From NCBI RefSeq assembly GCF_002954225.1, contig NZ_PPTH01000015.1, forward strand, positions 124,001-188,000: a stretch of DNA of 64,000 nucleotides, given 5' to 3'. The DNA comes from Arthrobacter ruber (lineage in GTDB: Bacteria > Actinomycetota > Actinomycetes > Actinomycetales > Micrococcaceae). Under the pieces are notes generated by a model, which was not told the DNA's origin, searched no databases, and saw nothing but the letters and a program-made list of their open reading frames with translations. How positions within the stretch are numbered: position 1 is the stretch's first letter; every line of letters begins with the position of its first letter. Made by a program: the position numbers and the translations under genes. Of this stretch, positions 8,133 to 58,945 are shown piece by piece.

Positions 8133-8213
8133 CTACTCGGGTGTAGCGCGAGTAGGTGGCGTGGAACTCCAGTAAGTGCTACTCGTGTCGACAGTCGGCA
8201 GCCTTCCTAGGCT
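8133..8213 (+). promoter_or_regulatory. LuxR-type operator/promoter of the first luxR pair (candidate)
   Basis: The proximal box AGTA-AGTGC-TACT (8171-8183) is followed after exactly 24 nt by TAGGCT (8208-8213), a -10 candidate; predicted transcription start is about 8220. A distal perfect inverted repeat CTACTC-N11-GAGTAG (8133-8155) is centred 33 bp further upstream. No -35 hexamer is visible, as expected if an activator occupies that position. The same box, 24-nt gap and TAGNCT recur upstream of the flippase (49091) and gtrA (58903). This would make luxR1 autoregulated or cross-regulated. Confidence 0.6.
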
Positions 8214-8254
8214 CATGGGGAACCACACATTCTCCGAACCCTGGAAGTAGTCCG

Positions 8255-8329
8255 ATGGATCTGCACCTCCTTGGCATCACGATTACCTCGTCACTCCTCC
8301 CCGCCGAACGCACGGCGGTGCCACTATGA
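8255..8329 (+). CDS. Candidate 24-aa leader peptide coupled to luxR1
   Basis: A small ORF beginning MDLHLLGITI and ending RTAVPL. Its TGA overlaps the ATG of luxR1 (ATGA). It has its own ribosome site GGAAG seven nt before the ATG, whereas the luxR1 ATG at 8326 has none. Its start lies about 35 nt after the predicted transcription start, the same distance as the gene starts behind the other promoters of this type. I infer translational coupling or a regulatory leader. The peptide itself matches nothing I recognise. Confidence 0.5.
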   Translation: MDLHLLGITITSSLLPAERTAVPL

Positions 8330-10947
8330 GCCGGCTGGCAGAGGCTCCGTTCTTCGTGGGCCGGGAGGACGTCGTCGCCGCGGTCGAGGAAGCCCTGCTC
8401 TCCGCCGGGTCGGTCGGCGCGGTGCTCGTGGGTGACGCCGGCGTCGGCAAGACCGCCATCATGCAGCAGGCGCTGACGTCCCATGCCGCGGAGCTGCTCG
8501 TCATCCGCATCCGTGGCTCCAAGGGGTCCGCCCACCAGGCGTTCCGCCCGGTGAACTTCCTGCTCTCGGAGCTCGAGGCGGACGTGATGGACCACCCCGT
8601 GATGGTGCTCCAGGCGGTCTCCGGCCTGCTGAACTTCCAGGCACGAGGCCGGCGTGTGGTCCTCGCCGTCGACAACATCGAGTACCTCGATCCGTCCTCG
8701 GCGGCCCTGATCACGCAGCTGGTCCTCAACGGCACGGCCAGCGTGCTGCTGACCTCGCAGGACTTCACGGCCGCGGACCCCATGTTCGCCTCGCTCTGGC
8801 GTGAGGGTTCCCTGAAGCGTTTCGACCTCTCGCCCTTCACCACCGCCGAGGCCCGGGCTTTCCTCGAGGCCGAACTCGAGGGACCGGTCAGCGTGGAATG
8901 CGTGCACCTGCTCCTGACGATGAGCGGGGGTAACGCACGCTTCCTGCAGGCCGCCACCCGGGCCCTGCGCGGTCGCCGGATCGTCAAGCAGGACGGCACC
9001 TGGGTGCTCCTGCACGGCACCACCCCTGTGCCGACCGAGATCGCCGAGGCTGCGCTCGCCCTCGTGGAGGGCCTGCCGAGCGCAGAGCGCGACGTCGCCC
9101 ACACCCTGGCCCTCGCCGGTCGACTGCCCCTGGCGACCGCGCACGGCCTTGCGGGCAGCGCCGCCGTGGACAGCCTGCAGTCGGCGGGGCTCGTCGCCGT
9201 CCGGCACGGCATGCAGGAGTACGCGGAGCTCTCCAACGCGGTCCTGGCAGAGGGTGCCGCGGAGTCCCTCTCCGTGCAGCGCTCCCGCGAACTGTACGAG
9301 CGGCTGGCGGGGGACACCGCCCTGATGGGTGCCCTCGACCCCGAGCGGCACGCCCGCTGGCTGGTGCGGTGCCACGAGTCCGTCCCCACCGGGCTGTGCC
9401 TCGCCGCGGCGCGGTCGGCGCGCACTGCCGGCCGGTACTGCGACGCCGTCCTGTTCGCCGAGGTCCACGACCTGCACCGGTCCTCGGCCCCCGTCGCGGC
9501 TGAACGCATCTGGGCGCTCACGGACGCCGGCCGCTTCGAGGACGCGGCGAACGCCCTCTCACTCGCCATGCCGCTGCTGGAGAAGGCCGCACCGGCCGAC
9601 GCCGTGCAACTCCTCCTGGCCGACGCCGTGCTGCGCAACATCCTCGGCCTCAACGGCGAGGAACCCCTCGACTGCGCCGAGGAGCTCGTCAGCACACTGG
9701 AGGATACCGGTGAGCGAACCGCACTCGAGGCGGAGATCGTGATGACACGGGCGGAACTGGCGTCGCTGAACGGCGAGTTCGAGCGTTCCAGGGACCTGGT
9801 GCTGTCCCTGCAGGAAGCGCCCTACCCGCCCGGCCTCGACCGGAAGATCCGCACCGACGTGCTCCTGTGCGAGGCGTGGGCCATGCTGGAGAGCCAGCTG
9901 GACGCCCTCCAGCTCGCCGACGACATCGCCGACCGGCTGCGCCACGGCACGGTGAGCCACCGCACGCGGGAGGTGGCCTACCTCCGCCTCGCCGTGGTCT
10001 ACAGTGGCTCCGGCAGCTGGGCCAATGGCGCACGGCGCCTCGGGCTCGATGCCGGGGACAGCGAGGTGGCGCACCGCGGGTCCGCCGTGCAGCTCTCCCT
10101 GGGGCTCGTCCTCAGCCGGTACGGGCAGCCCGAGGACGCCCTGGGGCTCCTGACCCCGGCGTTCCGCCAGCTCAGGGTCAGCGATCCCCACCGTCTCCTG
10201 CCGGTCGCCGCCGCGGCGATCGCCTACTGCCACACCATGTCCCGGAACGTTCAGGACGCCATCCCCTTCCTCGTCCACGCGGAACCCGCCCCGGGCGTGC
10301 CCTGGACGGTGCGCCGGCTGGCGGCCCAGCTGCAGCTCACCAGCCTCGGACTGCGCGAGCCGAAGGCCACCGCTGCCCAGCAGCTGCAGGTCCTGGGGCA
10401 GAGGGACCGGGAGCGGGGAGCCTCGCTCTTCGAACTGTCGGCCTTCACGAGTTCGGTGCGCCTCGGCAACACCGGAGCGCTCGCAGAGCTTTCCGACGTC
10501 GCTGCCCGGGTGCAGGGACCGTTCGCCCGCCTCAGCGAGATGTTCGCCAAGGGCATCAGCCACCGCGACGCGGAGGTCCTGCTGCAGGCCATGGAACTGG
10601 CGGCGGCCAGTGGCGACCAGAACTTCGGTCGCGACGCCGCGCGGTCCGCCCTGAACGCGGCCCAGGCGCTGGGCAACAAGTCCACCGTGCGCGAGGTGCA
10701 GCAGAGGGCGCGGCAGGTCCTCGTCATCGAGACGGCCGGCGGCCCCATGTCGCAGCTGGACAGCCTCACGCCGCGCGAGAGCGAGATAGCGCAGCTGGCA
10801 GCAAGCGGCTACGCGAACCGGGAGATCGCCGAGATCATGTGCGTCTCCGTGCGGACCATCGAGGGCCATCTGTACCAGATCTACTCGAAACTGCACGTCT
10901 CCTCCCGGCTGCAGCTGGCCGAACTCCTACCCACTCCGCTGCAGTGA
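8326..10947 (+). CDS. Large ATPase-type LuxR family transcriptional regulator (luxR1)
   Basis: An 873-aa LAL/STAND-like regulator. The N-terminal AAA/NACHT-type ATPase has Walker A GDAGVGKT at residues 36-43 and Walker B VVLAVDN near 112. A long alpha-helical, TPR-like middle probably senses a ligand or protein. The C-terminal LuxR helix-turn-helix is LTPRESEIAQLAASGYANREIAEIM..VRTIEGHLYQIYSKL. It shares layout with the three other regulators at 10944, 53620 and 56136, with Walker A at nearly the same residue in all. It is co-translated with the next gene (GTGA overlap). It is probably a direct activator of surface-glycan genes nearby; the targets are inferred from shared boxes. Confidence 0.88.
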   Translation: MSRLAEAPFFVGREDVVAAVEEALLSAGSVGAVLVGDAGVGKTAIMQQALTSHAAELLVIRIRGSKGSAHQAFRPVNFLLSELEADVMDHPVMVLQAVSGLLNFQARGRRVVLAVDNIEYLDPSSAALITQLVLNGTASVLLTSQDFTAADPMFASLWREGSLKRFDLSPFTTAEARAFLEAELEGPVSVECVHLLLTMSGGNARFLQAATRALRGRRIVKQDGTWVLLHGTTPVPTEIAEAALALVEGLPSAERDVAHTLALAGRLPLATAHGLAGSAAVDSLQSAGLVAVRHGMQEYAELSNAVLAEGAAESLSVQRSRELYERLAGDTALMGALDPERHARWLVRCHESVPTGLCLAAARSARTAGRYCDAVLFAEVHDLHRSSAPVAAERIWALTDAGRFEDAANALSLAMPLLEKAAPADAVQLLLADAVLRNILGLNGEEPLDCAEELVSTLEDTGERTALEAEIVMTRAELASLNGEFERSRDLVLSLQEAPYPPGLDRKIRTDVLLCEAWAMLESQLDALQLADDIADRLRHGTVSHRTREVAYLRLAVVYSGSGSWANGARRLGLDAGDSEVAHRGSAVQLSLGLVLSRYGQPEDALGLLTPAFRQLRVSDPHRLLPVAAAAIAYCHTMSRNVQDAIPFLVHAEPAPGVPWTVRRLAAQLQLTSLGLREPKATAAQQLQVLGQRDRERGASLFELSAFTSSVRLGNTGALAELSDVAARVQGPFARLSEMFAKGISHRDAEVLLQAMELAAASGDQNFGRDAARSALNAAQALGNKSTVREVQQRARQVLVIETAGGPMSQLDSLTPRESEIAQLAASGYANREIAEIMCVSVRTIEGHLYQIYSKLHVSSRLQLAELLPTPLQ

Positions 10948-13655
10948 TCCCCCGTGAGGAGGGACAGGTTCCCCTCGTAGGTGTCGAGCGGATCCTGGGT
11001 CCCATAGTCCACACCCTGACCCACCCCGACCTGCACGGAGCGCTCGTCGTCGGCGAGACCGGTGTGGGCAAGAGCGCGGTGGCCCGCCGCCTGGTGCCGA
11101 TCATCGACGGCCACCAAAAACGGAGCTTCGTCATCCGCGCCACGGAGGGCCTGGCCGACGTCCCCTACGGGGCACTCGGCGCGTACCTCTCGCACGCCAC
11201 GCCGCAGGCGCTCGGATCCTCCCTGTCCGTCCTTCGGATCCTCGTCGCCTACCTGCGGGAGGCGTCCCAGGGGCGCGACGCCGTGGTGGTGGTCGATGAC
11301 GCCCAGTACCTCGACGACGACAGCAGCCACATCCTCACCCAGCTGGTGATCTCCCGCACCATCAAGGTGGTCCTCTTCTCCAACGGGATCGTCCCCCGCT
11401 CTGGCGAACTGTTCTCTCTCTACACCGATGGCTTCATCAGTCGCGTGGACATCACGGGCCTCACCGACGCCGACGTCGGCACGCTGAGCGAAGCGGTTCT
11501 GGGAGGGCCCATGACGCGGGGAGCGGAAGCCTACTTCGCGCGCCAGAGTGCCGGGAACCCGCTCATGCTGCGGGCACTGCTCAATCATTCCTTGACCACG
11601 GGGGAGATCATGAGGCGGGACGGCGTGTGGTGCCTCTCCGGTCGCTTCAGTCCGCCCGGTCCGCCGCTGATGGATCTTGCGAAGACACTGCTCCAGGGGC
11701 TCAGCGAGCAGGAACGCAACGCGTTCGAGGCCGTCGCTCTCAGTGGTGGTCTGAGTCCTGCACGGTTTGCCCGGGTCGAGGAGGACACCGTGGCCCAGCA
11801 GCTCCTGCGCCGCGGACTCCTGCGCCATCCGGGTGCACCCACCGGGCCCCTGCGCGTCACGCATCCCATGATGACGCGCATCATGCGGGCGCTGGTCCCG
11901 GCCGGTAGGAGTGCGGACCTGCGTCGCCAGGTCTTCGACGAGGACGTGGTGCTGCCCGCCCTGCAGGACGGGCGGATCGAGTACCTGAACTGGGCACTCG
12001 ACGCCGGTGTGACGGTCCCGGCCACGGTCCTGCTGGACGCCGCCAGGATCGCCGCATACGTCTCGCGTCCGGAGTCAGCGCTGCGCTTCGCGGGTGCCGC
12101 GCGGCCCGAGACCGGTGACGCCGCTGCGACGGTCGAGGAAGCACGGGTACGGCTGGTCCTGGGTGAGTACGCGGTGGCCATCGCGATGCTCGACCAGGTG
12201 CTGTCAGGTTCTGCCGCGCAAGGGCCGCTGGTGGACGCCGCCAGTCTCAAGGCGCTCGCCTGCGTGCGACGCGGCGACGCCCCCGGCATCGTGCACTCCA
12301 TCGCCGATGCCTGCGCGCAACGCCTGTATGCTGCTCCTTCAGAGCCGGACGACGGCAACCGGACGACGGCGGACAGCGCCGAGGCCGCACGGAAGGACCT
12401 GAGGCTCCTGCACGTGCTCGGCTGGGTCCTGGAGGGGCAGCTCTCCACAGGAGGCGGAGAATTGGACGCCCTCGATCGCTCGGTGTCCTTCGCGGATGTC
12501 GGGCCGGCCGCCCATGTGCCCGTGCTGGTGTCGATGTTCCGCGGCATCATCGAGGGAGCGTCCGGAGCCTGGGACTCCGCCCTCGCGGAGCTGCGATCCG
12601 CCCTCGACGAGGTGAACAGGTCCCAGGGGGACCTCGAGCACCTGCGGGCGCCCGTCGTCGCGCAGTATGCCGGCGCGCTCATCCACGCAGGCGACTTCTC
12701 CACGGCCACGCAGGTGCTGGACGAGTACCGCCGGGAACCCCTCGTGGACCTGAGCTACCTCAGCGGGGCCCTGCCCACACTGCAGGCGTTCGTGGAGGTA
12801 CGGCGGGGCCGTTTCCGTTCAGCGCTGCGCATCCTCGAGCCTGCGCTCGCGGCGCTCCGGCAGACGGACACCGAGATGCTGCTGCCCTACGCGCTCGGCG
12901 TCGCCGCCTGGGCGGCGTACTCGGTGGGGGAGAAGGACGCCGCGCGCGGCTTCGAGCAGGAGTTCAGCGCGGTGGCGACGACCGGCAGCCGCGCGCATCT
13001 GGTCCTCGGCCGTGCCTTCCTCGCTGCCGCGACCTCCGACGGCGCCGAGTCGGGCCGTGATCTGAACGCGCTCCGCGACGTCGCCGATACCGCCGAGTCC
13101 GCTCCTTTCCCCGCGTGCGAGAAGGATGTCCTGGAGTTGTTGGTGGAACTCGGGGACACGGCGAGCGCCTGGCGGCTTGCCGAGCTCGCGGACACTTTCG
13201 AGGGCGCGGAGGCGCAGGTGGTCTCGCAGTACGCGCATGCGCTGACGGCGGCGGACCCGGATGCGTTGCTCACGGCCGCGGACCATGCCGAGGCGCTCCA
13301 GAAGATACCGCTCGCTGCGGATGCCTCGGCCAGGGCAATGCGCCTGTACGCCGAGAAGGGGGATGTGAGGGCCAGGCGCGTGGCCCTGCGCGCCATGCGC
13401 CGGCGGCAGTCGCTCCTCGAGGGGATGCCGGTGCACGAGGAGGGCGACCTCCGCAGTGCCCACGAGCTGACGTCGCGTGAACGCGAGATCGCGAAGCTCG
13501 CGGCAGAGGGGGCCACCAACAGGGCGATCGCCCGGACCCTCGTTCTGTCCACGAGGACGGTCGAGGGGCATCTCTACCGGATCTACGGGAAGCTGGGCAT
13601 CACCACGCGGGAGGAATTGGCCGCCGAATTCGCCGGGGACCAGGAGCAGCACTGA
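10944..13655 (+). CDS. Large ATPase-type LuxR family transcriptional regulator (luxR2)
   Basis: A 903-aa paralogue of luxR1. I chose the GTG at 10944 because it overlaps the luxR1 stop (GTGA) and places Walker A GETGVGKS at residues 37-44, the same position as in the paralogues. Walker B is VVVVDDAQYLDDD. The C terminus has the LuxR helix-turn-helix LTSREREIAKLAAEGATNRAIARTL..TRTVEGHLYRIYGKLGI. No own ribosome site is visible, so translation depends on luxR1. Strict coupling of two different LuxR proteins suggests a heteromeric regulator; this is inference. Confidence 0.87.
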   Translation: MIPREEGQVPLVGVERILGPIVHTLTHPDLHGALVVGETGVGKSAVARRLVPIIDGHQKRSFVIRATEGLADVPYGALGAYLSHATPQALGSSLSVLRILVAYLREASQGRDAVVVVDDAQYLDDDSSHILTQLVISRTIKVVLFSNGIVPRSGELFSLYTDGFISRVDITGLTDADVGTLSEAVLGGPMTRGAEAYFARQSAGNPLMLRALLNHSLTTGEIMRRDGVWCLSGRFSPPGPPLMDLAKTLLQGLSEQERNAFEAVALSGGLSPARFARVEEDTVAQQLLRRGLLRHPGAPTGPLRVTHPMMTRIMRALVPAGRSADLRRQVFDEDVVLPALQDGRIEYLNWALDAGVTVPATVLLDAARIAAYVSRPESALRFAGAARPETGDAAATVEEARVRLVLGEYAVAIAMLDQVLSGSAAQGPLVDAASLKALACVRRGDAPGIVHSIADACAQRLYAAPSEPDDGNRTTADSAEAARKDLRLLHVLGWVLEGQLSTGGGELDALDRSVSFADVGPAAHVPVLVSMFRGIIEGASGAWDSALAELRSALDEVNRSQGDLEHLRAPVVAQYAGALIHAGDFSTATQVLDEYRREPLVDLSYLSGALPTLQAFVEVRRGRFRSALRILEPALAALRQTDTEMLLPYALGVAAWAAYSVGEKDAARGFEQEFSAVATTGSRAHLVLGRAFLAAATSDGAESGRDLNALRDVADTAESAPFPACEKDVLELLVELGDTASAWRLAELADTFEGAEAQVVSQYAHALTAADPDALLTAADHAEALQKIPLAADASARAMRLYAEKGDVRARRVALRAMRRRQSLLEGMPVHEEGDLRSAHELTSREREIAKLAAEGATNRAIARTLVLSTRTVEGHLYRIYGKLGITTREELAAEFAGDQEQH

Positions 13656-13736: not shown

Positions 13737-13779
13737 AGTTCCCTGTACTGGTGGTGGTCCCATCAGGATTCCGTAATGT
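13737..13779 (+). promoter_or_regulatory. LuxR-type box and -10 element driving a gene-less transcript (candidate)
   Basis: AGTT-CCCTG-TACT (13737-13749) is followed after exactly 24 nt by TAATGT (13774-13779). This is the same box-gap-hexamer geometry as at 8171, 49091 and 58903. Predicted transcription start is about 13786. Further GTAGT/AGTACT elements lie just upstream (13670-13730). The neighbouring genes converge on this interval, so no protein gene needs this promoter, which points to an RNA gene. Confidence 0.5.
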
Positions 13780-13785
13780 TGCTCG

Positions 13786-13918
13786 TGTTGGTGCAAGGCC
13801 GCACCAGCAGAAGGGCTTGTGCCCTCACCCGAATGGAAGCGGGTCCCGGAGTCGGGGCCAGCGGCATAGGAGTCTTCTTGAGACCGAGATTCCGTCCCCA
13901 GCTGCCGCTGGCCCCTTT
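13786..13918 (+). ncRNA. Candidate small regulatory RNA between convergent genes
   Basis: Starting at the predicted +1 there are three hairpins in a row. The first spans about 13786-13809 (core TGGTGC/GCACCA, about 9 bp with flanks). The second is 13812-13825 (AGGGC-TTGT-GCCCT). The third is a perfect 12-bp stem, GGGGCCAGCGGC at 13854-13865 with GCCGCTGGCCCC at 13904-13915, followed by TTTCT, which can act as a terminator despite a 38-nt loop. The interval 13656-14023 holds no convincing protein gene: a 35-codon ORF at 13833 lacks a ribosome site. Expected size is about 130 nt. Confidence 0.5.
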
Positions 13919-13954
13919 CTCCGGATTCAGGGCAACCTGACCGAAGTTTGATGA

Positions 13955-14006
13955 GGTAGTACGACGCCGGGCCGGAGCAATTGCTTCGGCCCGGCGTCGT
14001 AGTACC
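13955..14006. terminator. Strong hairpin, probable bidirectional terminator
   Basis: A perfect 15-bp stem TACGACGCCGGGCCG (13960-13974) pairs with 13987-14001 around the loop GAGCAATTGCTT. It is extended by four more pairs (GGTA/TACC) beyond one G-G mismatch. It lies 18 bp beyond the stop of the minus-strand LANTG gene and downstream of the candidate sRNA, so it can stop both transcripts. The T-tract is poor, as is usual in Actinobacteria. Confidence 0.8.
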
Positions 14007-19844: not shown

Positions 19845-20439
19845 ATTGAGACCTCTCTAGCCGAAACCGGTCAACGCCAGCTTGCAGGGCGCATCTGCAT
19901 CCTATAGCGAGCGCGCCTCGGTCAGCCCTTCGACGCGGCGCGCCGGCCTTAAAGACACCGACACAAGGATTCGCCCTTTGATGGGGAGCGCGTCTAGACA
20001 GAGCTCCAACTACCTCGACTCACCGAGTGCGGCCGACTATAGCCGGCGCCCTGCACGGGTTTGGAGCGATGACTCAATCCACTTGGAGCAACAGCCGCCG
20101 TCACTTGGACATCGACCGAGGTCACATTCGAACCCGCTTCTGACGGGATCAGACCACTTGCACGCTCGGCTTCCGAGTGCCCCGGGGAACCCTCGGTGTG
20201 TGGGGTGTTTGGGTCTTCAAATTTCATTGCAGGTTGCTTCAGGGTACGCGCCAAATCTCGACAGGAGGAGCTGGGACGTCGGCTGCACGGTAGATGCACT
20301 TCCTGGCGGTAGCATCGGCAGGACGCCGGTATGACGCTTCCCGCCGGGTGGGACGTCAACGGAATGAAATCTGGGTGCACTAGAATCGGCCGGAATCGGC
20401 CGGAATCGTCGCTCGAGTCTCGAATGAAGTGGGAGCAGC
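19845..20439. other. 595-bp divergent intergenic region
   Basis: It separates the minus-strand wzz operon from the plus-strand glycosyltransferases. On the minus strand CTATAGG (TATAGG at 19906-19901) is a candidate -10 for the BY-kinase gene. On the plus strand TAGAAT near 20382 is a candidate -10 for the GT4. A short tandem repeat of AATCGGCCGG (about 2.5 copies) lies near 20386-20410. I see no coding potential and no AGTA-N5-TACY box. Confidence 0.4.
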
Positions 20440-46939: not shown

Positions 46940-47757
46940 GACACCCGCTGCATATGCAGGACAGCGCCGAAGCTCGCGATGCCGTCCCGGATAGGCCGGA
47001 AGGTGGACGCCGGCCCGTCCGTCCAAGCGACAGGAAGTTCGAGGATCCGCCCCCCGGCGTGCTGGATCCTCTGCAGGAGTTCCACGTCGAAGGCGAACCC
47101 CATCGTCCGGCATTCCACGAGCGCGCGCTTCGCTGCACCCGTTTCGAAGAACTTGAAACCGCACTGTGTGTCGGCGATACCCTGCACCATCCGGCGCGTC
47201 ATCAGGCGGAACGCGGTGCCACCTACCCTCCGCCCCAGGTGTTGCGGTTGCACGAAGGTCGATCCCGGGACGTGGCGCGAGGCGATGACCGCGGATGCGC
47301 CTGCCTCGAGGTACGTCATCGCATCAGTGAGCGTGGAGATCGGTGTGGCGAGGTCGGCATCGAGGAACCCGGCGAAGTGCGCGCGGCTGCTCAGCAGGCC
47401 GCGGCGGACCGCGGCCCCCTTGCCGGGCTGGGCGCAGCCCATCAGCCGTATATCCACGGCATCCGACGCACGGGCGATTCTCGCCACCACGGCACTGGTC
47501 TCGTCGACGCTCCCGTTGTCCACCACGACGATCCTCGAGGACCACGGCTGGGACGCGAGGAAGTCCGCGGTTGCCCGCAACGTGGTCGGGATGCGCTCGG
47601 CCTCGTTGTAGGCGGGGATGATCACTTCCAGATCCACGGGACGGCGGGGAGCCGCGGTGAAGACCGGGTGGGCCGTCGACCGCCGGTCACCAATGGGTGG
47701 CCGCGTCTCGACGGGATGGGATTGGGCCTCGCGGACAAGACGCGTTCCTGTCTCCAC
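46936..47757 (-). CDS. GT2, polyprenyl-phosphate sugar synthase-like
   Basis: A 273-aa GT-A enzyme like dolichyl/polyprenyl-phosphate mannose or glucose synthases. It shows LEVIIPAYNEAERIPTTL, VVVDNGSVDET, GKGAAVRRGL, the metal-binding DADLATP and TQCGFKFF. It has no C-terminal membrane helices. The start is GTG 47757 with a perfect GAGGAG four nt upstream, not the TTG 12 nt earlier. It opens the operon 47757-41878. It probably supplies the lipid-linked sugar for the GT39-like enzyme two genes on. Confidence 0.87.
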   Translation of the reverse strand: METGTRLVREAQSHPVETRPPIGDRRSTAHPVFTAAPRRPVDLEVIIPAYNEAERIPTTLRATADFLASQPWSSRIVVVDNGSVDETSAVVARIARASDAVDIRLMGCAQPGKGAAVRRGLLSSRAHFAGFLDADLATPISTLTDAMTYLEAGASAVIASRHVPGSTFVQPQHLGRRVGGTAFRLMTRRMVQGIADTQCGFKFFETGAAKRALVECRTMGFAFDVELLQRIQHAGGRILELPVAWTDGPASTFRPIRDGIASFGAVLHMQRVS

Positions 47758-47796
47758 GGATCTCCTCAAGTCGCAGCTCCTTCAGGAGCGGACCCT

Positions 47797-47839
47797 GTCC
47801 TAAGGGCAGGCATCCGCACCACCGAAGGTAGTAGCGGCC
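47797..47839 (-). promoter_or_regulatory. Half-site LuxR-type box with -10, promoter of the second glycan operon (candidate)
   Basis: On the minus strand GGCC-GCTAC-TACC (47839-47827) precedes TAGGAC (47802-47797) by exactly 24 nt. Only the downstream TACC half fits the AGTA-N5-TACY consensus. Predicted start is about 47790, giving a 33-nt leader that begins with the small hairpin GCTCCT-GA-AGGAGC. The remainder of 47770-47971 shows further GTAG/GTACT elements and no gene. Confidence 0.4.
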
Positions 47840-47971
47840 ACGGGAGGAGGCACGGGTAGGGGATACCTCATTTGACCACCCGGGTACTCGGACGGCCGCG
47901 GAGTCATACCTCAGCAGTCTTCACGGGCCGAGAGGACGAAGGGCGGTGCATCCTGCGTCGCGGCACCGGGG

Positions 47972-48958: not shown

Positions 48959-49090
48959 GCCTATCGTCCTCTGAGTGCGGTGATCAGGGAGTCCGGTGCT
49001 GCGCTTGAGACCTCCAGCGCGCTCAGTATAGGGCTCGGCGCGCACCGGCTCCGGTATCACCCCACCAAGTAGTAGCGGGGCGGGGAAGCG

Positions 49091-49133
49091 AGTAGACGGT
49101 ACTGGTGTCAGTCCGTCGGTGCCTCCGTAGTCT
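49091..49133 (+). promoter_or_regulatory. LuxR-type operator/promoter of the flippase gene (candidate)
   Basis: AGTA-GACGG-TACT (49091-49103) is followed after exactly 24 nt by TAGTCT (49128-49133). Predicted start is about 49140, 32 nt before the TTG at 49172. A second GTAGTAGCGG element lies upstream at 49068. Geometry is identical to the 8171 and 58903 promoters. Confidence 0.6.
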
Positions 49134-49171: not shown

Positions 49172-50677
49172 TTGACGATCGGTCCGATCCCCGAACTACA
49201 GGCAGGGTTGACGCTTCCCGCAGGTGCCACGGAGCACGCGGGCGGAAGCCCCCGCGTGGCGCACTACGGCGTACTGCTGTCCGCAGGTGCAGGACTCGTC
49301 GGTGTGCTGAGCTACGTGATCACGCTGATCATGGCGTATGCCCTGGCACCCGCCGACTTCAGCCGGTTCGCCGCTGCCCAGATGATGCTGGGGATGGTCG
49401 GCATTGTCACGTCGGCCCTGGTCCCCCTGCCTCTGTCGCAGGCAGTGACCGCGCATCCGCCGGGCTCGGAGCAGCGACGTGACGCCATCGCGTTCGCGGT
49501 GACGGTGTCGGTGGGCGTCGGTCTCGTGGCCGCCCTGGTCACGGGGGCGGTCGCTGCAGGTCTCGGTTCCGGATCGACGGCAGCCTTCGTCGCCCTCTCC
49601 ACCCTGGTGCTGTTCATCGGGGCGGCGCCGTCCGGGTGGATCCAGGGGGAGTTGCGTTTCGTCCGGTACACCGTCAAGTCGGTGGGTGAGGTCCTCATCC
49701 GGTTGGTGTTCTCGATCCTCGTCGTGGTGTTCGCCTGGGGCGCCCCCGGTGCTGTCCTCGGGTTCGCCATGGGCGGGCTGGCCCTGCTGGTCACGCCGCG
49801 GTCCTTCCTCCGGGACGTCACGTGGCGCCCGCGGGTGATGCGTCAGAGATGGCGCTGGGCCGAGACGTCGGACATAGCGTCGACGCTGTGCGTCGTGTCG
49901 GTGCTCGTCGGGATCGACGTCGTCCTCGTGGCATTCCTCGACGGCGGCTCCACCGCTGCCGCCGGCCTGCAGGCCCTGGCGTCCATCGCGAAGGCCCCCG
50001 TGTACGTCGCAGCCGGCACCGTCATCGTGGTGTTCCCGTTGCTGCGCCGCCCGGGGGTCGACAGCGTCCTCATCCTCACCGATGCGTTGCGGTCCTTCGG
50101 GCGGCTCGCGCTCGTGGCCTGCGCCGTCATCGCTACGGCTCCGCACGACCTGGTGGCGCTCGTCCTGCCAGAGCGGTACCACTCGTCGTTGGGCCTCCTG
50201 CCCTGGCTCGCACTGTCAGGGCTCGGCTACGCCGCAGTGACGGTCCTGGCAACGGTCCTGCTCGCACTGCGCGCCTACCGGCGGTGCCAACTGGGGCTGG
50301 CGGTGGCGTCGGTGCTGATCCTCGGCGGCTTGTTCGCGGGCTGGGCGTTGGGAGGTGTCGAGGGTATCGCGATCGGGTGCGCGGTGGGTGCCCTCACGGC
50401 AGCCGGGGCCCTGACGATGTTCGCAGCGCCGATCCTCCCGCCGGCTTCCGGCCCCATGGCGATCAGGGGGTTGGCCATCGCCGGAGGCTTTGCGTTGGTG
50501 CTCAAACTGGCCGCCGGGCTGCCCCTCATGTGGCTGCTGCTCGTCCTGCTCACCGGGCTGGTGGTCCTGGCCCAGCTACGGAAGAACAATCCCCTGGAGA
50601 AGCTGCGCGTATGGCAGCGATCCCTGACCCCGCGTTCGGGCCGGCACACGGCACGGCGGCGTCAACAGCGTTCCTGA
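49172..50677 (+). CDS. MATE/polysaccharide-type flippase, second set
   Basis: A 501-aa membrane protein with about 12-14 helices and no extramembrane domain. The N-terminal helices GAGLVGVLSYVITLIMAYALAPADFSRFAAAQMML match Wzx/MurJ-superfamily exporters. TTG 49172 has a perfect GGAGGG six nt upstream; GTG 49148 is an alternative but would lie only 8 nt after the predicted transcription start. It presumably exports the glycan made by the adjacent operon. Its 3' end overlaps the convergent beta-helix gene by 16 nt. Confidence 0.83.
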   Translation: MTIGPIPELQAGLTLPAGATEHAGGSPRVAHYGVLLSAGAGLVGVLSYVITLIMAYALAPADFSRFAAAQMMLGMVGIVTSALVPLPLSQAVTAHPPGSEQRRDAIAFAVTVSVGVGLVAALVTGAVAAGLGSGSTAAFVALSTLVLFIGAAPSGWIQGELRFVRYTVKSVGEVLIRLVFSILVVVFAWGAPGAVLGFAMGGLALLVTPRSFLRDVTWRPRVMRQRWRWAETSDIASTLCVVSVLVGIDVVLVAFLDGGSTAAAGLQALASIAKAPVYVAAGTVIVVFPLLRRPGVDSVLILTDALRSFGRLALVACAVIATAPHDLVALVLPERYHSSLGLLPWLALSGLGYAAVTVLATVLLALRAYRRCQLGLAVASVLILGGLFAGWALGGVEGIAIGCAVGALTAAGALTMFAAPILPPASGPMAIRGLAIAGGFALVLKLAAGLPLMWLLLVLLTGLVVLAQLRKNNPLEKLRVWQRSLTPRSGRHTARRRQQRS

Positions 50678-53345: not shown

Positions 53346-53465
53346 GACGCGCGGCAGAACCTTCACCACATGGTGCGAGCGCCTCTGTCGGCTCCATGTA
53401 GCCCACTTCCCTTGTGTGGTGAACAGCGGGAAAGTACGAGAGCGCGAAGGCTGTCTGTCGAAGGA

Positions 53466-53506
53466 AGTAGCCCGAGAGGCGAAAGCAGGTACTCATCGAG
53501 TAGTAT
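53466..53506 (+). promoter_or_regulatory. GTA-type repeat cluster upstream of the second luxR pair
   Basis: AAGTAG (53465-53470) is followed by TACTC-ATC-GAGTA (53490-53502), a perfect inverted repeat, and TAGTAT (53501-53506). The half-site words match the proposed LuxR box, but the N5 spacer and 24-nt distance to a TANNNT do not hold. It is either a variant site or a differently arranged promoter for luxR3-luxR4. The rest of 53346-53619 shows nothing. Confidence 0.35.
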
Positions 53507-53619
53507 TCGGCCTTATTACCGTACTGATCGACGACTCGTCGAGAAGGCCGAAATGCTTGATCCCGCCAGCACGCTGCACAGGGACAGGTTCTGGCTCAGC
53601 AGAGGGACAAGGGGGGTCC

Positions 53620-56136
53620 GTGAGCGACGACTACGCGGGCACCTGGCCGCTGCTCCAGCGCTCCGAGGAGGTCGCGGCCGTCCTGACGGGCCTCGCGACG
53701 CCTGGCAGGGCCGGTACGCTGATCGTCGGCTCACCCGGTGTGGGCAAGACGGCGATCGCTCGCGCGGCGGCAGCGCAGCTCGAGGACAGCTCCCACGTGG
53801 TCCTCATCCGTGGATCGGCCGCCATGACCGCCACGCCATACGGCGCCCTCACTGTTCTCCTGATGGACGCCGATCCCGCCGGCAGCCTCGAGTCCCTTCC
53901 GATGCTGCAGTCCCTGCAGACCGCATTGCTATTACGTGCCCGCAACCGCCCTGTGATCCTCGTGGTGGACAATGTGCAGCACCTCGACGAACCGTCTGCC
54001 CGGGTGCTGTCCTACCTCGCCGAAGTGGGGGCGGCACGCCTGCTCGTGGCCTGCGACGGACCTAGCGCGGCTGGTGCGCGCTTCTTCGACCTCTGGCGCA
54101 GAGGCCGGCTGGTCCGCGTGGACGTGGCACCGCTGAGCTTCGGGGGGACGCGTGCGCTCCTCGAGCAGTTGCTGGAGGGCCCGCTCACTGCCACGGTCGC
54201 CGTCGAGCTATGGCGCGCGAGCCACGGCAACGCTCGCTACCTCCAGGCTGCCGTGCGCGCCAGCGTAGCCTCGGGCATCCTCACCCGCGCGCCCGAGGCA
54301 TGGATATGGCATGCCACGGAGGATGGTTCGCATCTGCAGGCGAGGGGTGACACTTCCGCTGCACTCGGCGCGTTGCCGGCTTTGTCCGAGGGCGCCGAAG
54401 CAACACTGCACGTCGTCGCCGTCGCCGGTCCCGTGCCACTGGACGCGCTCCTGCCCCTCTGGGGTGCGGCAGTGGTGGACGAGCTCGAGCAGGCGGGGAT
54501 CTGCGCGCTCGACCCCTACCCGCCGCATGCCGTCGGGGTGGTGAACACCGTACTCGGCGACCGCGTACGTTCCGCACTTGCCGCCAACCCGCTGCCGGTC
54601 TTCCTCGAGCAGCTCAACGCGCTCGACGTCGGGGGCCTCCTCCCGGCGCCGTCGCGCATGAGTCTGCTGCGCTGGATCCTCGACGCAGGGGTACCGGTAC
54701 CGGGAACCTACCTCCGCGCCGCGGCATGCACCGCCAACGATGCCGGCGATCCGGTCCTTGCCCTCCGAGCCGCCGCGCACCTGACCGACGTGGACGCCGC
54801 AACCCTTGAACGGGTTCGCGTATGCCTGAGAGAGCGGCGCTTCAGCGAAGGACGCGCCGTGCTGAAGCACGCCCTGGAGGGTGGGCCGTCGACGGACCCT
54901 TCAGATGCAGCCACCGAGGCCCGCTCGCTCGCTATCGAGGCGGCGGTGCACGAGGGACGCCACGGCGACGTCCTGGCACTCGCGAAGGCGACGGACGAGG
55001 AGCCGTTGCTCGACGAGGGCCGCGACGACCCGCTGGCTGTCGAACGGGCCGCGCGGATCGTCCTGGCCAGGAGCCTCACGGGGACAGGCCCAGGGGCCAA
55101 GAGGTCGCTCGCTCGGCTCCGCGGGACCGAGCTGCCGGTGCCCACGGGTACCGCGACGCGCATGCTGCAGGAGAACGGCTTCGCGGCACTCGTCCACGAG
55201 GGGTACCTCGAGGACGCGCTGCTCCTCACGGGTGCTTCCGCGCTGGTCGCCGGTCGATGGCAGGATCCCGCGGTCCCCGACGCCCTCACAGGGGCGGCGC
55301 TTGCTGCGTTCGGACAGGCAGAGGCCGCGGTCGCGGTCATCGTGCCTGCCGTCGAGCAGTTGCGCGTCGACAACCGGAGCAGTCTGCTGCCCCTCGCCGA
55401 GGCTGCCAGGACCTACGCCGCTGCCCTGCTGCGCCGGGAGGATGCGTCCACCGACGCGGGCGTCACAGCCCCGGCAGGGTCCCCGGACACTGCCACGGCG
55501 GAGGGCTTGCCGTGGGCTTACCGCTCGGCCATCTGCCTGCTCTCCACTCTGTCAGATTCTTTGCTCGCCGACAGCGAGGTTGCTGCCCGCCGCTTCGCGG
55601 TCCTCGCCAACGGGCAGCGGGCGGCCGGCAACCACGGGGTGGAACTGAGCCTGCGAATGCACGCTGTCCGCCTCGGCCAGCAGTCCCAGGCCCCGCTGCT
55701 GCTGGACCTCGCCCGTCGCATGGACACGCCGCTCGCCGAGGCGTGTGAGCTACTGGCACAGGGGGTCGCGGCACGGGATCCACGCATACTGCTGCAGACC
55801 GCGGAGGTGGCGTTCGAGATCGGGCATCTGGACCTGGCGGGCTCTGCGGCCCTGATGTCCATGCGCCTCCACGAAACCGATGACGAGCCCCTGCATTTCA
55901 TCCGGGCTGAGCAGATCTTCCGGCGAACTCATGTGCCCAGGAAGAATGCGAGCGCCCGCCGTATCCTGACCGACCGGGAGCGTGCCTTCGCCCGCATGGC
56001 GGCGCACGGCGCCTCGAACAAGGAGGTGGCTGCCATCCACCACCTCTCCGTGCGCACGGTGGAGGGCCACATCCTGAAGGCCATGGCAAAGCTCGGCATC
56101 TCCAGCCGTAAGCAGCTCGCAACGGTGTTCACCTGA
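53620..56136 (+). CDS. Large ATPase-type LuxR family transcriptional regulator (luxR3)
   Basis: An 838-aa paralogue of luxR1/2. GTG 53620 has GGGGGG upstream and puts Walker A GSPGVGKT at 37-44, as in luxR2 and luxR4; the longer frame has an unrelated basic N terminus. Walker B is VILVVDNVQHLDEPSA. The C-terminal helix-turn-helix LTDRERAFARMAAHGASNKEVAAIHHLSVRTVEGHILKAMAKLGIS is the most divergent of the four: the usual HLYRIY is HILKAM. Its stop overlaps the start of luxR4 (TGATG). This divergence may mean altered DNA binding or a partner role. Confidence 0.87.
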   Translation: MSDDYAGTWPLLQRSEEVAAVLTGLATPGRAGTLIVGSPGVGKTAIARAAAAQLEDSSHVVLIRGSAAMTATPYGALTVLLMDADPAGSLESLPMLQSLQTALLLRARNRPVILVVDNVQHLDEPSARVLSYLAEVGAARLLVACDGPSAAGARFFDLWRRGRLVRVDVAPLSFGGTRALLEQLLEGPLTATVAVELWRASHGNARYLQAAVRASVASGILTRAPEAWIWHATEDGSHLQARGDTSAALGALPALSEGAEATLHVVAVAGPVPLDALLPLWGAAVVDELEQAGICALDPYPPHAVGVVNTVLGDRVRSALAANPLPVFLEQLNALDVGGLLPAPSRMSLLRWILDAGVPVPGTYLRAAACTANDAGDPVLALRAAAHLTDVDAATLERVRVCLRERRFSEGRAVLKHALEGGPSTDPSDAATEARSLAIEAAVHEGRHGDVLALAKATDEEPLLDEGRDDPLAVERAARIVLARSLTGTGPGAKRSLARLRGTELPVPTGTATRMLQENGFAALVHEGYLEDALLLTGASALVAGRWQDPAVPDALTGAALAAFGQAEAAVAVIVPAVEQLRVDNRSSLLPLAEAARTYAAALLRREDASTDAGVTAPAGSPDTATAEGLPWAYRSAICLLSTLSDSLLADSEVAARRFAVLANGQRAAGNHGVELSLRMHAVRLGQQSQAPLLLDLARRMDTPLAEACELLAQGVAARDPRILLQTAEVAFEIGHLDLAGSAALMSMRLHETDDEPLHFIRAEQIFRRTHVPRKNASARRILTDRERAFARMAAHGASNKEVAAIHHLSVRTVEGHILKAMAKLGISSRKQLATVFT

Positions 56137-58775
56137 TGACCGGGGACACGATGGCCCGCGACCTGCTCGCGGGGCGGAAAAATCAGCTCGCGCGCGTGGC
56201 CGGAGCGCTCGGTGATCCCTCGATCTCCGGCATCCTGCTCCTGGGCGAGGCCGGGATCGGCAAGACCACCCTCGCGGCCGCTGCCGTCGCGGGCATCGTT
56301 CCGGGAGCCCAGGTGTTGCACATCCGCGGCAGCACCGCGCTTCGCGGCGTACCTTACGGGGCCCTGTCATCGTGGCTCACCGGTCTGCCGGCCGAGGACA
56401 TGGAGGAGTTCGTCATCGTCCTACGGCGCGTGGTGCAGGCGCTCGATAGGATCTCGCGGCCCGGCAGCAGCCTGCCGCTGCTCGTGATCGACGACGCCCA
56501 CGACCTCGATGTGAACTCCATGACGTTGATCGCGCAGCTGCTCGGCATGCGTAGGGCGCGGGCGCTGTTCCTCGCCCGGCAGACACCCGGACTGCCCCAG
56601 GGCCTGCACGAACTGGTCGCCGACGGCATCGTGGTGAGCGTGCCCGTCGAGCCGCTGACCCTCGTCGATATCGAGGAGTTGTGCATCGCGCTCCTCGACG
56701 GACCCGTGGCAGCAGCCCTCGTGCACGCCGTGAAGCACCTGACGCTCGGCAACCCTCTCCTCGTGCGTCTCTTCGTGAGGGACGGACTGACCCGGGAGTT
56801 CATCACCAAGGACGCCGGCGTGTGGCAGATCACCCGGCACCTGCCGCCCTTGAGCAAACAACTCTCCGACCTCGTGCACGCCGACCTCCAGGTGCTGGAC
56901 GATGACCAGCGCGAGGCGATGGAGCTCCTGGCCGTTGCCGGGCCTGTTCCCGGAGACGAAGCACGGGAGCTCATCGACTACGGCGTGCTGCAGCGCCTGC
57001 TGGGCGGCTCCTGGGCCAAGGTGCAGGAAGACGGCACACTGGTACCCGGGCACCCGATGCACGGTGAGGCGCTGCGCACCACCATCCCCACCGCGCGCCG
57101 GGTCCTGCTGCAGCGCAGCGCCCTCCACGCCGCTACAGCCCCACCTCGCGACGTCGGGGAGGTCCTCCGCCGGGCGTCGCTGGCCCTCGACGCAGGGGAG
57201 GCGATCGATGACGAGATCCTCCTGGCCGCCGCCACCAGCGCCAACCGATCCGGTAACAGCACCCTCGCCGTACGAGCGCTCCGCGCCATGCGCTCGCCGG
57301 AACTCGACGGGCGCCGCCTCGTCGAACTGGCATGGGCGCATGCCGACGACGGCCTGCTCGACGAGGCGCTCGACCTCGTCGACGAGGCCTTTGAAGCTTC
57401 CGCATCGCCGGCCGTCCTGCAGGAGGGCACTCTCCTCGCGCTGAGGGTGAGGACGCGCCGGGGCGAGCCCGCCGCCGTCCTCCACGGGGACGCCGACCGC
57501 TGGGAGCGCCTGCTCCGGCAGGCCGGGGCGGCACCGTCGGACCTTCTGGGCGTCACGGTCGGTCGCGGCCTGATCGCGCTGGCCACCGACGGCGCTGACT
57601 TCGACGCCGTGGCGGTCCAGCGGGCTGCTGACGAAGCCGATGCTCCCGTCCGGATCGCGGCGCTGCTGGCGCTCGCGGCGTCCTCGATCGAGACTGGCCG
57701 GCCCGTCGAGGGCGCCCGCCTCGTCCGGCAGGCGCAGGCACTCACGGACACGCACCCCGACGCACTCGCGCGGCAGGGCCAAGCGGTGTGTCTCGAACTC
57801 CTGGCCCTGGTCACAGGGGGGGAGTGGGAGCAAGCACGAGCTGTCGTCACGGTGCACCACCGGCGGGAGATGCGCCGTACCTCGTACCTCGCCGGATGGC
57901 TCGACCTGATCGACGGCGTGCAGGCGCTGCGGGAGGGTCGCTTCCCGATGGCGAGATCCCGACTCCATGCGGCCGTGCAGATCCTGCACGGCACCGAACA
58001 CCTCCACCTGCTGCCATGGATCGAGGGGCTGGCCGCCTACGCGGCGCTTCTCGACGGTGACCGGCAGCAAGCGGCCCTGCTGGTGGAACAGGGCGCCGCG
58101 GCATCAGGAGGATCACGGCTTGCGCGGCGGCTGGGCCAGGTGTATTCGGAATCCGTGAAGTCGGTCCTCGACACCGACCGCCAGAGCATCACCGGACTCG
58201 TGAGCCTGGCGGACGAGGCCGAGAGCGCCGGGCTGCTGCTCGTTGCCGCAACGGCACTCGACCAGGCCCTCGTGTTGGGCGACCGCTCCGTCCTCGGCCG
58301 TCTCGCAGATCTCACAGGATCCTTCGACGGCCGTGAGCACACGCTGCTGCACGCGTTCGCCCGGGCCGCTGCGGATGCTGATGCCGAACAGCTGGTCGAG
58401 GCCGGTGACGAGGCTCTGACCGCCGGCTACCGGCCACTTGCGGCCGCATGCTTCGTGCACGCGCGGGAGGTGTACGAGAAGCAAAGGGATTCTGCCGCCG
58501 TGCGCCGCGCCCAGAAGAAACTGGCCACAGCGAGTGCGGGGGTCGAGGGGCCTGCCACCACGCGTGCCGTCCGTCTCCCCTCGGCTGTCCAGCTGACACC
58601 GCGGGAAGCCACCATCGTGACCCTCGTGCTGCAGGGGCAGACCAACAAGCAGATCGCCGAGCGCGCCGGGACATCGGTCCGCACCGTGGAAGGCCACCTG
58701 TACCGCATCTTCATGAAGTTCGGCATCAGCAGGCGCGAGGACCTCCACCTGTTCGCCGAGGGCTCCTCCACCTGA
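56136..58775 (+). CDS. Large ATPase-type LuxR family transcriptional regulator (luxR4)
   Basis: An 879-aa paralogue. Walker A GEAGIGKT is at 37-44 and Walker B is LLVIDDAHDLDVNS. Long TPR-like helices follow. The C-terminal helix-turn-helix is LTPREATIVTLVLQGQTNKQIAERAGTSVRTVEGHLYRIFMKFGIS. It is coupled to luxR3 by a one-base TGATG overlap. The gtrA gene downstream carries the conserved box, so one target may lie next door. Confidence 0.87.
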   Translation: MTGDTMARDLLAGRKNQLARVAGALGDPSISGILLLGEAGIGKTTLAAAAVAGIVPGAQVLHIRGSTALRGVPYGALSSWLTGLPAEDMEEFVIVLRRVVQALDRISRPGSSLPLLVIDDAHDLDVNSMTLIAQLLGMRRARALFLARQTPGLPQGLHELVADGIVVSVPVEPLTLVDIEELCIALLDGPVAAALVHAVKHLTLGNPLLVRLFVRDGLTREFITKDAGVWQITRHLPPLSKQLSDLVHADLQVLDDDQREAMELLAVAGPVPGDEARELIDYGVLQRLLGGSWAKVQEDGTLVPGHPMHGEALRTTIPTARRVLLQRSALHAATAPPRDVGEVLRRASLALDAGEAIDDEILLAAATSANRSGNSTLAVRALRAMRSPELDGRRLVELAWAHADDGLLDEALDLVDEAFEASASPAVLQEGTLLALRVRTRRGEPAAVLHGDADRWERLLRQAGAAPSDLLGVTVGRGLIALATDGADFDAVAVQRAADEADAPVRIAALLALAASSIETGRPVEGARLVRQAQALTDTHPDALARQGQAVCLELLALVTGGEWEQARAVVTVHHRREMRRTSYLAGWLDLIDGVQALREGRFPMARSRLHAAVQILHGTEHLHLLPWIEGLAAYAALLDGDRQQAALLVEQGAAASGGSRLARRLGQVYSESVKSVLDTDRQSITGLVSLADEAESAGLLLVAATALDQALVLGDRSVLGRLADLTGSFDGREHTLLHAFARAAADADAEQLVEAGDEALTAGYRPLAAACFVHAREVYEKQRDSAAVRRAQKKLATASAGVEGPATTRAVRLPSAVQLTPREATIVTLVLQGQTNKQIAERAGTSVRTVEGHLYRIFMKFGISRREDLHLFAEGSST

Positions 58776-58804
58776 CACGACCCGGTAGTCCTCCGGATCG
58801 TGTC
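58774..58804 (+). terminator. Hairpin terminator overlapping the luxR4 stop
   Basis: GACACGA-C-CCGG (58774-58785), loop TAGTCCT, CCGG-A-TCGTGTC (58793-58804): an 11-bp stem with one internal mismatch. No T-tract follows. It separates luxR3-luxR4 from the gtrA promoter. Confidence 0.6.
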
Positions 58805-58902
58805 CCTGCCCCCCAGGCGCGCCCGCACGCGCCGACGTCACGGGAGCCGGGTACCAGCCGACCATCCCTGAGTAGAACCGCACGGACAGGCGATCCATGT
58901 GC

Positions 58903-58945
58903 AGTAGCCGCTACCCGTTCCTCCTCGTGCAGCCGATCCTAGGCT
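58903..58945 (+). promoter_or_regulatory. LuxR-type operator/promoter of gtrA-like gene (candidate)
   Basis: AGTA-GCCGC-TACC (58903-58915, containing the perfect GTAG-CCG-CTAC) is followed after exactly 24 nt by TAGGCT (58940-58945), in the same CCTAGGCTC context as at 8206-8214. Predicted start about 58952, 36 nt before the ATG. Confidence 0.6.

What the first reader, a model, noticed from the sequence alone, without database searches (positions are those of the whole stretch)
8171..58945. One operator-promoter module, AGTA-N5-TACY-N24-TANNNT, recurs at four or five dispersed genes
Read directly: AGTA-AGTGC-TACT..TAGGCT (8171-8213), AGTT-CCCTG-TACT..TAATGT (13737-13779), AGTA-GACGG-TACT..TAGTCT (49091-49133) and AGTA-GCCGC-TACC..TAGGCT (58903-58945). 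A minus-strand half-site version is at 47839-47797. In each the gap between box and hexamer is exactly 24 nt, so the box centre lies near -43, the class II position of LuxR-type activators. Predicted leaders before the start codons (leader-peptide start at 8255) are 32-36 nt. The window holds four LuxR paralogues, so they are the natural binders. If true, this defines a new regulon joining glycan export, GtrA, regulators and an sRNA.
Basis: partly seen in the sequence, partly recalled or inferred. Interest (0 to 1): 0.9.

Follow-up and report, generated by a model that had tools for sequence, protein, structure and literature searches.

The report
Shared promoter and small-RNA regulon
A repeated on-switch for sugar-coat genes in a soil actinobacterium also precedes a small RNA that matched no known family, whose loop is complementary to the start sites of many messages of the same switch in related bacteria, which suggests a two-layer control circuit.

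Summary
Four plus-strand modules lie at the stated coordinates with an exact 24-nt gap; the fifth is better placed 28 nt away. A matrix built from other genomes ranks these five top in the window; chance gives about 0.02 hits at that level.

The module is a conserved promoter of an Arthrobacter-like genus. The better consensus is CGAGTA-N5-TACTCGTG-N20-TANNNT, a 6-5-6 palindrome near -43, the layout reported for the LAL activator MalT of Actinoplanes. It precedes LAL genes, exopolysaccharide genes, GtrA and a small RNA, and 14 of 20 chosen LAL genes of other genera.

The small RNA is a covarying hairpin without an Rfam match (15 of 20 pairs double-changed), in 90 of 197 family genomes, 82 of them with a LuxR1-like LAL. 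Its loop GAGACC and strand CCCAGC complement GGTCTC and GCTGGG, the commonest non-overlapping hexamers of module mRNA leaders.

Best reading: LAL activators drive targets plus a small RNA that pairs with their start regions. Binding, expression and direction are untested; in the window itself the pairing evidence is thin, and in some relatives the hairpin may act in cis.

The parts
8171..8213 (+). Module 1 (LuxR1): box 8171-8183, hexamer TAGGCT 8208-8213; extra direct half-site CGAGTA at 8149-8154
   Evidence: 17 of the 18 aligned LuxR1-like promoters of the genus have the module
8255..8329 (+). Leader ORF of 24 codons whose TGA overlaps the LuxR1 ATG (ATGA)
   Evidence: such an overlap in 6 of 17 promoters, the window's included
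8326..10947 (+). LuxR1, LAL-type regulator (AAA_16 ATPase plus GerE HTH)
10944..13655 (+). LuxR2, second LAL regulator of the pair (start codon uncertain)
13737..13779 (+). Module 2, promoter of the small RNA
   Evidence: same position after LuxR2 in relatives
13786..14000 (+). Small RNA gene, predicted start to end of a terminator-like inverted repeat (13961-14000; no T run in this genome)
13855..13914 (+). Conserved covarying hairpin of the small RNA; loop CUUGAGACC, single strand with UCCCCAGC
47825..47867 (-). Module 3 (minus strand), before two glycosyltransferase genes
45425..47769 (-). GT2 (46936-47769) and GT4 (45425-47164) glycosyltransferases
49091..49133 (+). Module 4
49172..50677 (+). 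Protein of 501 aa without Pfam or NCBIfam match, downstream of module 4
53416..58775 (+). LuxR3 and LuxR4, second LAL pair (53416-56136, 56136-58775)
58903..58945 (+). Module 5 (GtrA)
58982..58990 (+). GGTCTCATG: complement of the sRNA loop, overlapping the GtrA start codon
58988..59626 (+). GtrA-family membrane protein
19847..19853 (-). GGTCTCA just before the TTG start of the Wzz/BY-kinase gene (18384-19844, minus), a candidate sRNA target without a module
   Evidence: p=0.01; same site in L052

Best explanation
The module is an activator-dependent promoter. A LAL (MalT-like LuxR) protein of the locus binds the palindrome CGAGTA-N5-TACTCG, centred about 43 nt upstream of the transcription start and overlapping the position of a -35 element, and recruits RNA polymerase to a TANNNT -10 element at a fixed distance. 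It drives LAL genes themselves (autoregulation), exopolysaccharide and other glycan genes, GtrA, and one to several copies of a hairpin small RNA. The RNA exposes UGAGACC in its loop and UCCCCAGC in an internal single strand. These pair with GGUCUC(A) at, and GCUGGG upstream of, the start codons of transcripts from the same promoters, and of some other glycan genes such as Wzz/BY-kinase, and most likely block translation initiation: a feed-forward or feedback brake. Shown by sequence statistics: conserved module, fixed spacing, sRNA structure, complementary motifs. Inferred: the binder, expression, pairing in cells, and direction of the effect.
For: Matrix from outside the window's clade: window sites are the top five. 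LuxR1-like promoters: 17 of 18 aligned keep GTA-N5-YACTCGTG-N20-TA (one with GCA); with the 12 less similar fetched loci, 20 of 30 have a matrix hit of 11.5 or more. Relatives' clusters plus window, 744,277 bases: 78 hits against 7 in the reversed control (matrix fitted to these hits). Other genera: 14 of 20 chosen LAL upstream regions score 10 or more, 0 of 100 resampled. sRNA: 99.5% of cells paired, 15 of 20 pairs double-changed, 0 of 500 shuffles. 46 of 61 distinct sRNA copies have a module within 400 nt upstream, 2 of 61 downstream. sRNA in 34 of 35 same-genus and 90 of 197 family genomes, and in no genome outside the family in the samples. LAL and sRNA 82/8/6/101. GGTCTC in 16 of 42 non-redundant leaders without a hairpin downstream, against 1.9 expected, the commonest of 4096 hexamers; GCTGGG 12 against 0.9; 0-5 and 1-3 of 42 at other offsets. 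RNAduplex p<=0.05 in 27 of 66 leaders. Actinoplanes MalT: TCATCC-5nt-GGATGA, 3' end 34.4 nt from the start.
Against: No binding, expression or start-site data. In the window only GtrA among the four mRNA modules has an exact GGTCTCA, and none of the four leaders pairs with the window's sRNA better than shuffles (p 0.46-0.59). Five genomes have the sRNA loop CCCCAGACU, yet two leaders there (L144, L146) keep GGTCTCG; further copies with UGAGACU were found in three of those genomes. In 10 of 38 modules followed by a hairpin, leader GGTCTC and hairpin lie on the same transcript about 210-240 nt apart, so pairing could be in cis. GGTCTC before ATG is not enriched across whole clusters (11th of 90 permutations by count). 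8 genomes have the sRNA without a LAL hit at the cut-off and 6 the reverse; kinship was not corrected for. 15 of 61 sRNA copies show no module upstream. 10 of 30 LuxR1-like loci of the genus and 6 of 20 in other genera lack the module.
Confidence: 0.7

Rival explanations
1. The module is the promoter of an alternative (ECF-like) sigma factor, TACTCGTG being its -35 and TANNNT its -10, with no activator.
For: The right arm TACTCGTG is more conserved than the left arm in this genus, and hits drop when the hexamer is shifted (79 at the true spacing, 7 to 28 at shifts of -3 to +5).
Against: The box is a complete palindrome in some other-genus loci (CGAGTA-N5-TACTCG in L159, L161, L191), LuxR1-like promoters carry an extra direct half-site 20 bp upstream in 15 of 18 aligned, and the geometry equals that of an activator, Actinoplanes MalT.
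Confidence: 0.1
2. The module is activator-bound, but by a regulator other than the LAL proteins of the locus.
For: No binding data; a SARP-like (BTAD) gene is itself a module target in a relative (L144).
Against: LAL and sRNA co-occur across 197 genomes, modules lie upstream of LAL genes in 6 of 8 other genera sampled, and a LAL operator of this geometry is known.
Confidence: 0.15
3. The sRNA is real but GGTCTC in the leaders has another role, such as a protein site or part of the start region, and does not pair with it.
For: Weak pairing in the window itself; two leaders keep GGTCTCG although the main sRNA loop differs.
Against: Two separate unpaired segments of the sRNA are complementary to the two commonest non-overlapping leader hexamers, in the order a duplex needs, and enrichment is confined to the leader.
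Confidence: 0.2
4. The hairpin is mainly a cis element: leader GGUCUC and hairpin loop GAGACC of one transcript pair and control its own translation or termination, and separate sRNA genes are secondary.
For: In 10 modules (sugar-transferase leaders of seven loci among them) the hairpin lies about 210-240 nt downstream of the hexamer, after a leader with GGTCTC.
Against: 28 of 38 hairpin-bearing modules have no GGTCTC in the first 75 nt, and 16 of 42 leaders with GGTCTC have no hairpin within 400 nt; several copies look like short transcripts of their own, one with a U-tract.
Confidence: 0.15
5. The modules are chance matches in a GC-rich genome.
Confidence: 0.01

Closest known systems
MalT-controlled large genomic region of Actinoplanes sp. 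SE50/110 (PMC7567727; abstract and passages seen)
   Same: LuxR (MalT-like) genes inside the region; one palindrome with 6-nt arms and a 5-nt spacer at 17 transcription starts, overlapping -35, 3' end 34.4 +/- 1.0 nt from the start (about 35 predicted here); motif also found in relatives
   Different: Half-site TCATCC/GGATGA against CGAGTA/TACTCG; maltose-linked region against exopolysaccharide; no sRNA mentioned in the passages seen
TpdR and the tetramethylpyrazine-inducible promoter, Rhodococcus jostii (PMC6099782; passages seen)
   Same: LAL activator in an actinobacterium; repeats overlapping -35, with an upstream direct copy
   Different: 15-bp direct repeats and 7-bp inverted repeats; a catabolic promoter
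SCO6993, LAL repressor of Streptomyces coelicolor (PMC9628970; passages seen)
   Same: LAL protein binding short palindromes, including its own promoter
   Different: Negative regulator; the authors could not predict a consensus site
sRNAs of a regulon that act on messages (for example the sigma-E sRNAs MicA and RybB; recalled, not looked up)
   Same: sRNA made by the regulon, pairing near start codons of messages
   Different: Here one promoter box precedes both the sRNA and most candidate targets, in a group recalled to lack Hfq; no published description of this sRNA was found

Membership tests
LAL (MalT-like) LuxR regulators | About 900 aa with an N-terminal Walker-type ATPase domain | tested here: met
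   873 aa; AAA_16 at 10-137; G36, G39, G41, K42, T43 invariant in 16 aligned proteins
LAL (MalT-like) LuxR regulators | C-terminal GerE/LuxR helix-turn-helix | tested here: met
   PF00196 in all four paralogues, E 1.5e-12 or better
MalT proper (NCBIfam NF003420 equivalog) | Score above the curated cut-off of 537 bits | tested here: not met
   26.4 bits for LuxR1 and 24.2 for LuxR2, helix-turn-helix region only
Operator geometry of Actinoplanes MalT | 6-5-6 palindrome overlapping -35 at a fixed distance from the start | tested here: met
   CGAGTA-N5-TACTCG, 24 nt from YACT to the hexamer (paper); arm sequence differs, and in this genus the left arm is often incomplete
Class II activator-dependent promoter | Activator site centred near -42 with a measured transcription start | not testable with these tools
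   -43 if the start lies 7 nt after the hexamer; in four relatives the sRNA hairpin begins 8 to 10 nt after the hexamer
Trans-acting small RNA | Own promoter, conserved structure, terminator | tested here: met
   Module upstream of 46 of 61 copies; 15 of 20 pairs double-changed; U-tract seen downstream in some copies only, in the window an inverted repeat without a T run
Trans-acting small RNA | Complementarity to target start regions | tested here: inconclusive
   Strong in relatives (27 of 66 leaders; hexamer ranking); weak for the window's own module leaders; cis pairing possible in some
Trans-acting small RNA | Expression and effect on targets | not testable with these tools
   No RNA data in reach
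Any Rfam 15 family | Score above the gathering threshold | tested here: not met
   Only a tRNA in the window; none in 16 sRNA loci

The most novel reading that the evidence does not exclude
A new sRNA family of the window's taxonomic family (Micrococcaceae by recall), displayed as GAGACC-looped hairpins (sometimes two in one transcript), is driven by LAL activators together with exopolysaccharide genes and pairs at two points, loop and internal strand, with a GCUGGG...GGUCUC tag placed in the leaders of several unrelated genes of the same regulon. Promoter and leader would together form one portable two-layer regulatory cassette, working in bacteria recalled to lack Hfq.
Probability: 0.55. Interest if true: 0.88.

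Novelty: new variant of a known kind. Interest (0 to 1): 0.78.

Why it matters
LAL regulators are recalled to be common in actinobacteria, while few have a defined operator. This gives one that can be tested directly, with a sequence, a geometry, and candidate binders encoded beside it. It also ties the operator to a strongly covarying small-RNA family without an Rfam match and to a leader tag complementary to it, which would make small-RNA control of exopolysaccharide in Arthrobacter-like bacteria testable.

Tried and rejected
Chance origin: rejected. Literal AGTA-N5-TACY as the definition: too narrow and too loose; 19 of its 23 strand-oriented genome hits lack TANNNT at +24. Whole-cluster enrichment of GGTCTC before ATG: not found, so the claim is limited to module leaders. 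Strict loop-to-leader covariation: not supported in the five CCCCAGACU genomes. Conserved leader peptide before LuxR1: its stop overlaps the LuxR1 start in only 6 of 17 promoters (window included) and no such ORF was found in 6. Structure of LuxR1: tool unavailable. Paper searches that listed no description of the module or the sRNA: (open-licence papers only; of the listed papers three were opened, and only passages of them seen).

Rows dropped and choices: 18 of 30 fetched LuxR1-like loci were aligned (L017-L034); the other 12 were scanned later. A first leader count (GGTCTC 20 of 47, GCTGGG 13 of 47) used a hand-made split between mRNA and sRNA modules; on checking, 11 modules counted there as mRNA have a hairpin downstream, so it was redone with the covariance model (16 and 12 of 42), and the report uses the second. 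The duplex test was not redone: its 66 leaders include those 11, and it used one genus-majority sRNA segment. Leaders of related genes remain partly dependent after the 60% identity filter. L068 was left out of the first sRNA alignment (13 of 14 loci) because its first TGAGACC is not the hairpin loop. The 20 regions were chosen from the best LAL hits of 8 other genera, 8 of the 20 from one genus.
Full report
What is there. The window lies in a 3.66-Mb genome (G000:C11:124001-188000) of an Arthrobacter-like genus: a named relative with 81% identity to LuxR1 in the best segment is Arthrobacter sp. B0490. Between glmU-prs and the peptidyl-tRNA hydrolase gene lies a glycan region with Wzz/BY-kinase, a priming sugar transferase, glycosyltransferases, a Wzy_C match below its cut-off, a Polysacc_synt protein, a pyruvyl transferase and a UDP-sugar dehydrogenase. 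One LAL pair lies just after prs and a second just after the hydrolase.

Observation. The four plus-strand modules are as described, with a 24-nt gap. The minus-strand site is better placed at 47867-47825. Exact AGTAN5TACY occurs at 16 places in the genome, 23 strand-oriented hits; 4 of the 23 have TANNNT at +24, three of them in the window.

Conservation in the genus. Thirty LuxR1-like loci were fetched. Of the 18 most similar, window included, 17 keep arm, spacer, YACTCGTG and TANNNT at the same distance (one with GCA for GTA); 15 of 18 also have a GTAR direct repeat 20 bp upstream of the proximal GTA, and two more have it shifted by one. Of the 12 less similar, 3 have a matrix hit of 11.5 or more within 500 nt upstream (25.6, 25.6, 12.9) and 9 do not. 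An iterated matrix over the window and relatives' clusters (744,277 bases) finds 78 hits at 11.5 or more, one more in L007, against 7 in the reversed sequences; shifting the hexamer by -3 to +5 leaves 7 to 28. These controls favour the matrix, which was fitted to the hits. Hits lie before LAL genes, the priming sugar transferase, glycosyltransferases and an intergenic RNA. A matrix from 72 sites outside the window's clade puts the five window sites on top; the only resampled hit at 16 or more scored 21.1. A profile search of 57 genomes reached E<=0.001 in 31 of 35 same-genus genomes, many of which supplied its training sites, and in 0 of 22 from other families, best 0.046.

Other genera. Twenty LAL upstream regions chosen from the best hits in 8 other genera: 14 score 10 or more with the genus-trained matrix (6 of the 8 genera), against 0 of 100 resampled sequences; 9 of those 14 also carry GGTCTC 30 to 70 nt after the hexamer; 6 of 20 lack the module. 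In seven sRNA loci of other genera a box lies upstream of the sRNA in all seven, as the best hit on that strand in five and the second best in two; no control was run, scores are modest (5.7 to 15.7), the hexamer is unclear in several, and one best hit (L164) is the same site as L189. The palindrome is complete in L159, L161 (position 1754) and L191.

The small RNA. Module 13737 is followed not by a gene but by a hairpin conserved in sequence and structure: in 13 genus sequences 20 pairs, none broken, 4 with double changes. A covariance model from these found 66 copies in the loci first searched (56 distinct): 99.5% of cells paired, 15 of 20 pairs with double changes, 0 of 500 shuffles as good on pairing, double changes or covariation, 3 of 500 on further pair types. 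The alignment was fitted to the structure and the sequences are related, so the shuffle counts are not probabilities; sliding the partners by 1 to 3 columns drops pairing to 33-61%. It is in 34 of 35 same-genus genomes and 0 of 22 from other families, in 90 of 197 family genomes and 17 of 32 genera, and in 11 of 198 genomes of an order sample, all 11 in the family. No Rfam family matches; weak hits in the window are below their gathering scores. Of 61 distinct copies with enough flank, 46 have a module within 400 nt upstream and 15 do not; downstream, 2 of 61. In four relatives the hairpin starts 8 to 10 nt after the hexamer, as a transcript starting about 7 nt after it would, and one is followed by a hairpin and U-tract. 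A second copy in this genome (G000:C11:113899-113965, outside the window) shows two GAGACC loops and a module-like site with a 25-nt gap that the fixed-gap matrix misses. GAGACC is kept in 49 of 59 distinct copies and CCCAGC in 41.

Link to the leaders. In the 13 first sequences the loop UGAGACC and the strand UCCCCAGC are invariant and unpaired. Of 93 modules scoring 23 or more, 38 have a hairpin within 400 nt downstream; the other 55 give 42 non-redundant leaders. In these, of 4096 hexamers, GGTCTC is the commonest (16 against 1.9 expected), the overlapping GTCTCA next, then GCTGGG (12 against 0.9); GAAGAA is also frequent (9 against 1.0). At other offsets GGTCTC is in 0-5 and GCTGGG in 1-3 of 42. 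The earlier hand-made split gave 20 and 13 of 47, and AGGAGG 2 against 1.5. The GGTCTC leaders belong to several gene kinds: LAL, a SARP-like gene (one of the similar ones scanned), a DUF4352 gene, GtrA, priming-transferase leaders. Predicted duplexes beat shuffles at p<=0.05 in 27 of 66 leaders (hand-made split, one genus-majority sRNA segment). In the window GtrA has GGTCTCATG; LuxR1, 49172 and 46936 do not, and none of the four is significant; Wzz/BY-kinase, without a module, has GGTCTCAATTTG and p=0.01, and its relative in L052 has GGTCTCAACTTG. In 10 modules, sugar-transferase leaders among them, leader GGTCTC and hairpin follow each other on one transcript, so pairing in cis is possible there.

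Who binds. Across 197 family genomes 82 have both a LuxR1-like LAL (E<=1e-25) and the sRNA, 8 the sRNA alone, 6 the LAL alone, 101 neither (kinship uncorrected). Actinoplanes MalT, a LuxR-family activator, uses TCATCC-5nt-GGATGA with its 3' end 34.4 nt from the start (PMC7567727, abstract and passages); here the 3' end would be about 35 nt away. TpdR (PMC6099782) and SCO6993 (PMC9628970) were seen in passages only. LAL binding is therefore likely, not shown.

Confidence by step: module real 0.97; LAL binder 0.8; sRNA real 0.93; pairing in trans with GGUCUC leaders 0.7; inhibition rather than activation 0.6 (inference from the position at the start codon). The family name Micrococcaceae and the statements on Hfq and sigma-E sRNAs are recalled.

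Noticed in passing
G000:C11:113718-113965 (locus L119, 10 kb before the window): Second sRNA copy of this genome: two hairpins in tandem, both with UGAGACC loops, and a module-like site with a 25-nt gap.
   Followed up: partly
L060:14664, L061:15338, L062:15305, L066:17572, L067:19170, L068:1939, L071:4892, L084:14815: Sugar-transferase-type leaders of relatives: module, GGTCTC before a short ORF, then an sRNA-type hairpin about 210-220 nt after the hexamer, which may act in cis.
   Followed up: partly
window 8255-8329: 24-codon leader ORF whose stop overlaps the LuxR1 start (ATGA), suggesting translational coupling; such an overlap in 6 of 17 promoters, no such ORF in 6.
   Followed up: partly
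window 49012-49006, minus strand: GGTCTCAAGC downstream of a TATACT in the presumed leader of the GNAT gene 47972-49060; pairing with the sRNA not significant (p=0.32).
   Followed up: partly
L007:1936 (-), G000:C12:57432: Candidate extra module (AGTAG-N4-TACTCGTG, CAAGCT at +24) before a GT2 glycosyltransferase gene elsewhere in the genome; profile E 0.15.
   Followed up: partly
L008:1958 (-), G000:C13:34531: Candidate extra module AGTAGGGCTTACTGGTT with TACGTT at a 25-nt gap.
   Followed up: no
L127, L128, L130, L137, L138: Relatives of the second sRNA also show a further GAGACC loop upstream of the modelled hairpin.
   Followed up: no
L156, L158: An sRNA-type hairpin lies about 100-150 nt upstream of a module whose leader has GGTCTC.
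   Followed up: no
L144-L147: In four genomes of the genus a module with a GGTCTCG leader precedes similar genes; the one scanned (L144) is a SARP-like (BTAD) regulator.
   Followed up: partly
window 5412-5483: tRNA gene on the plus strand just before glmU.
   Followed up: no
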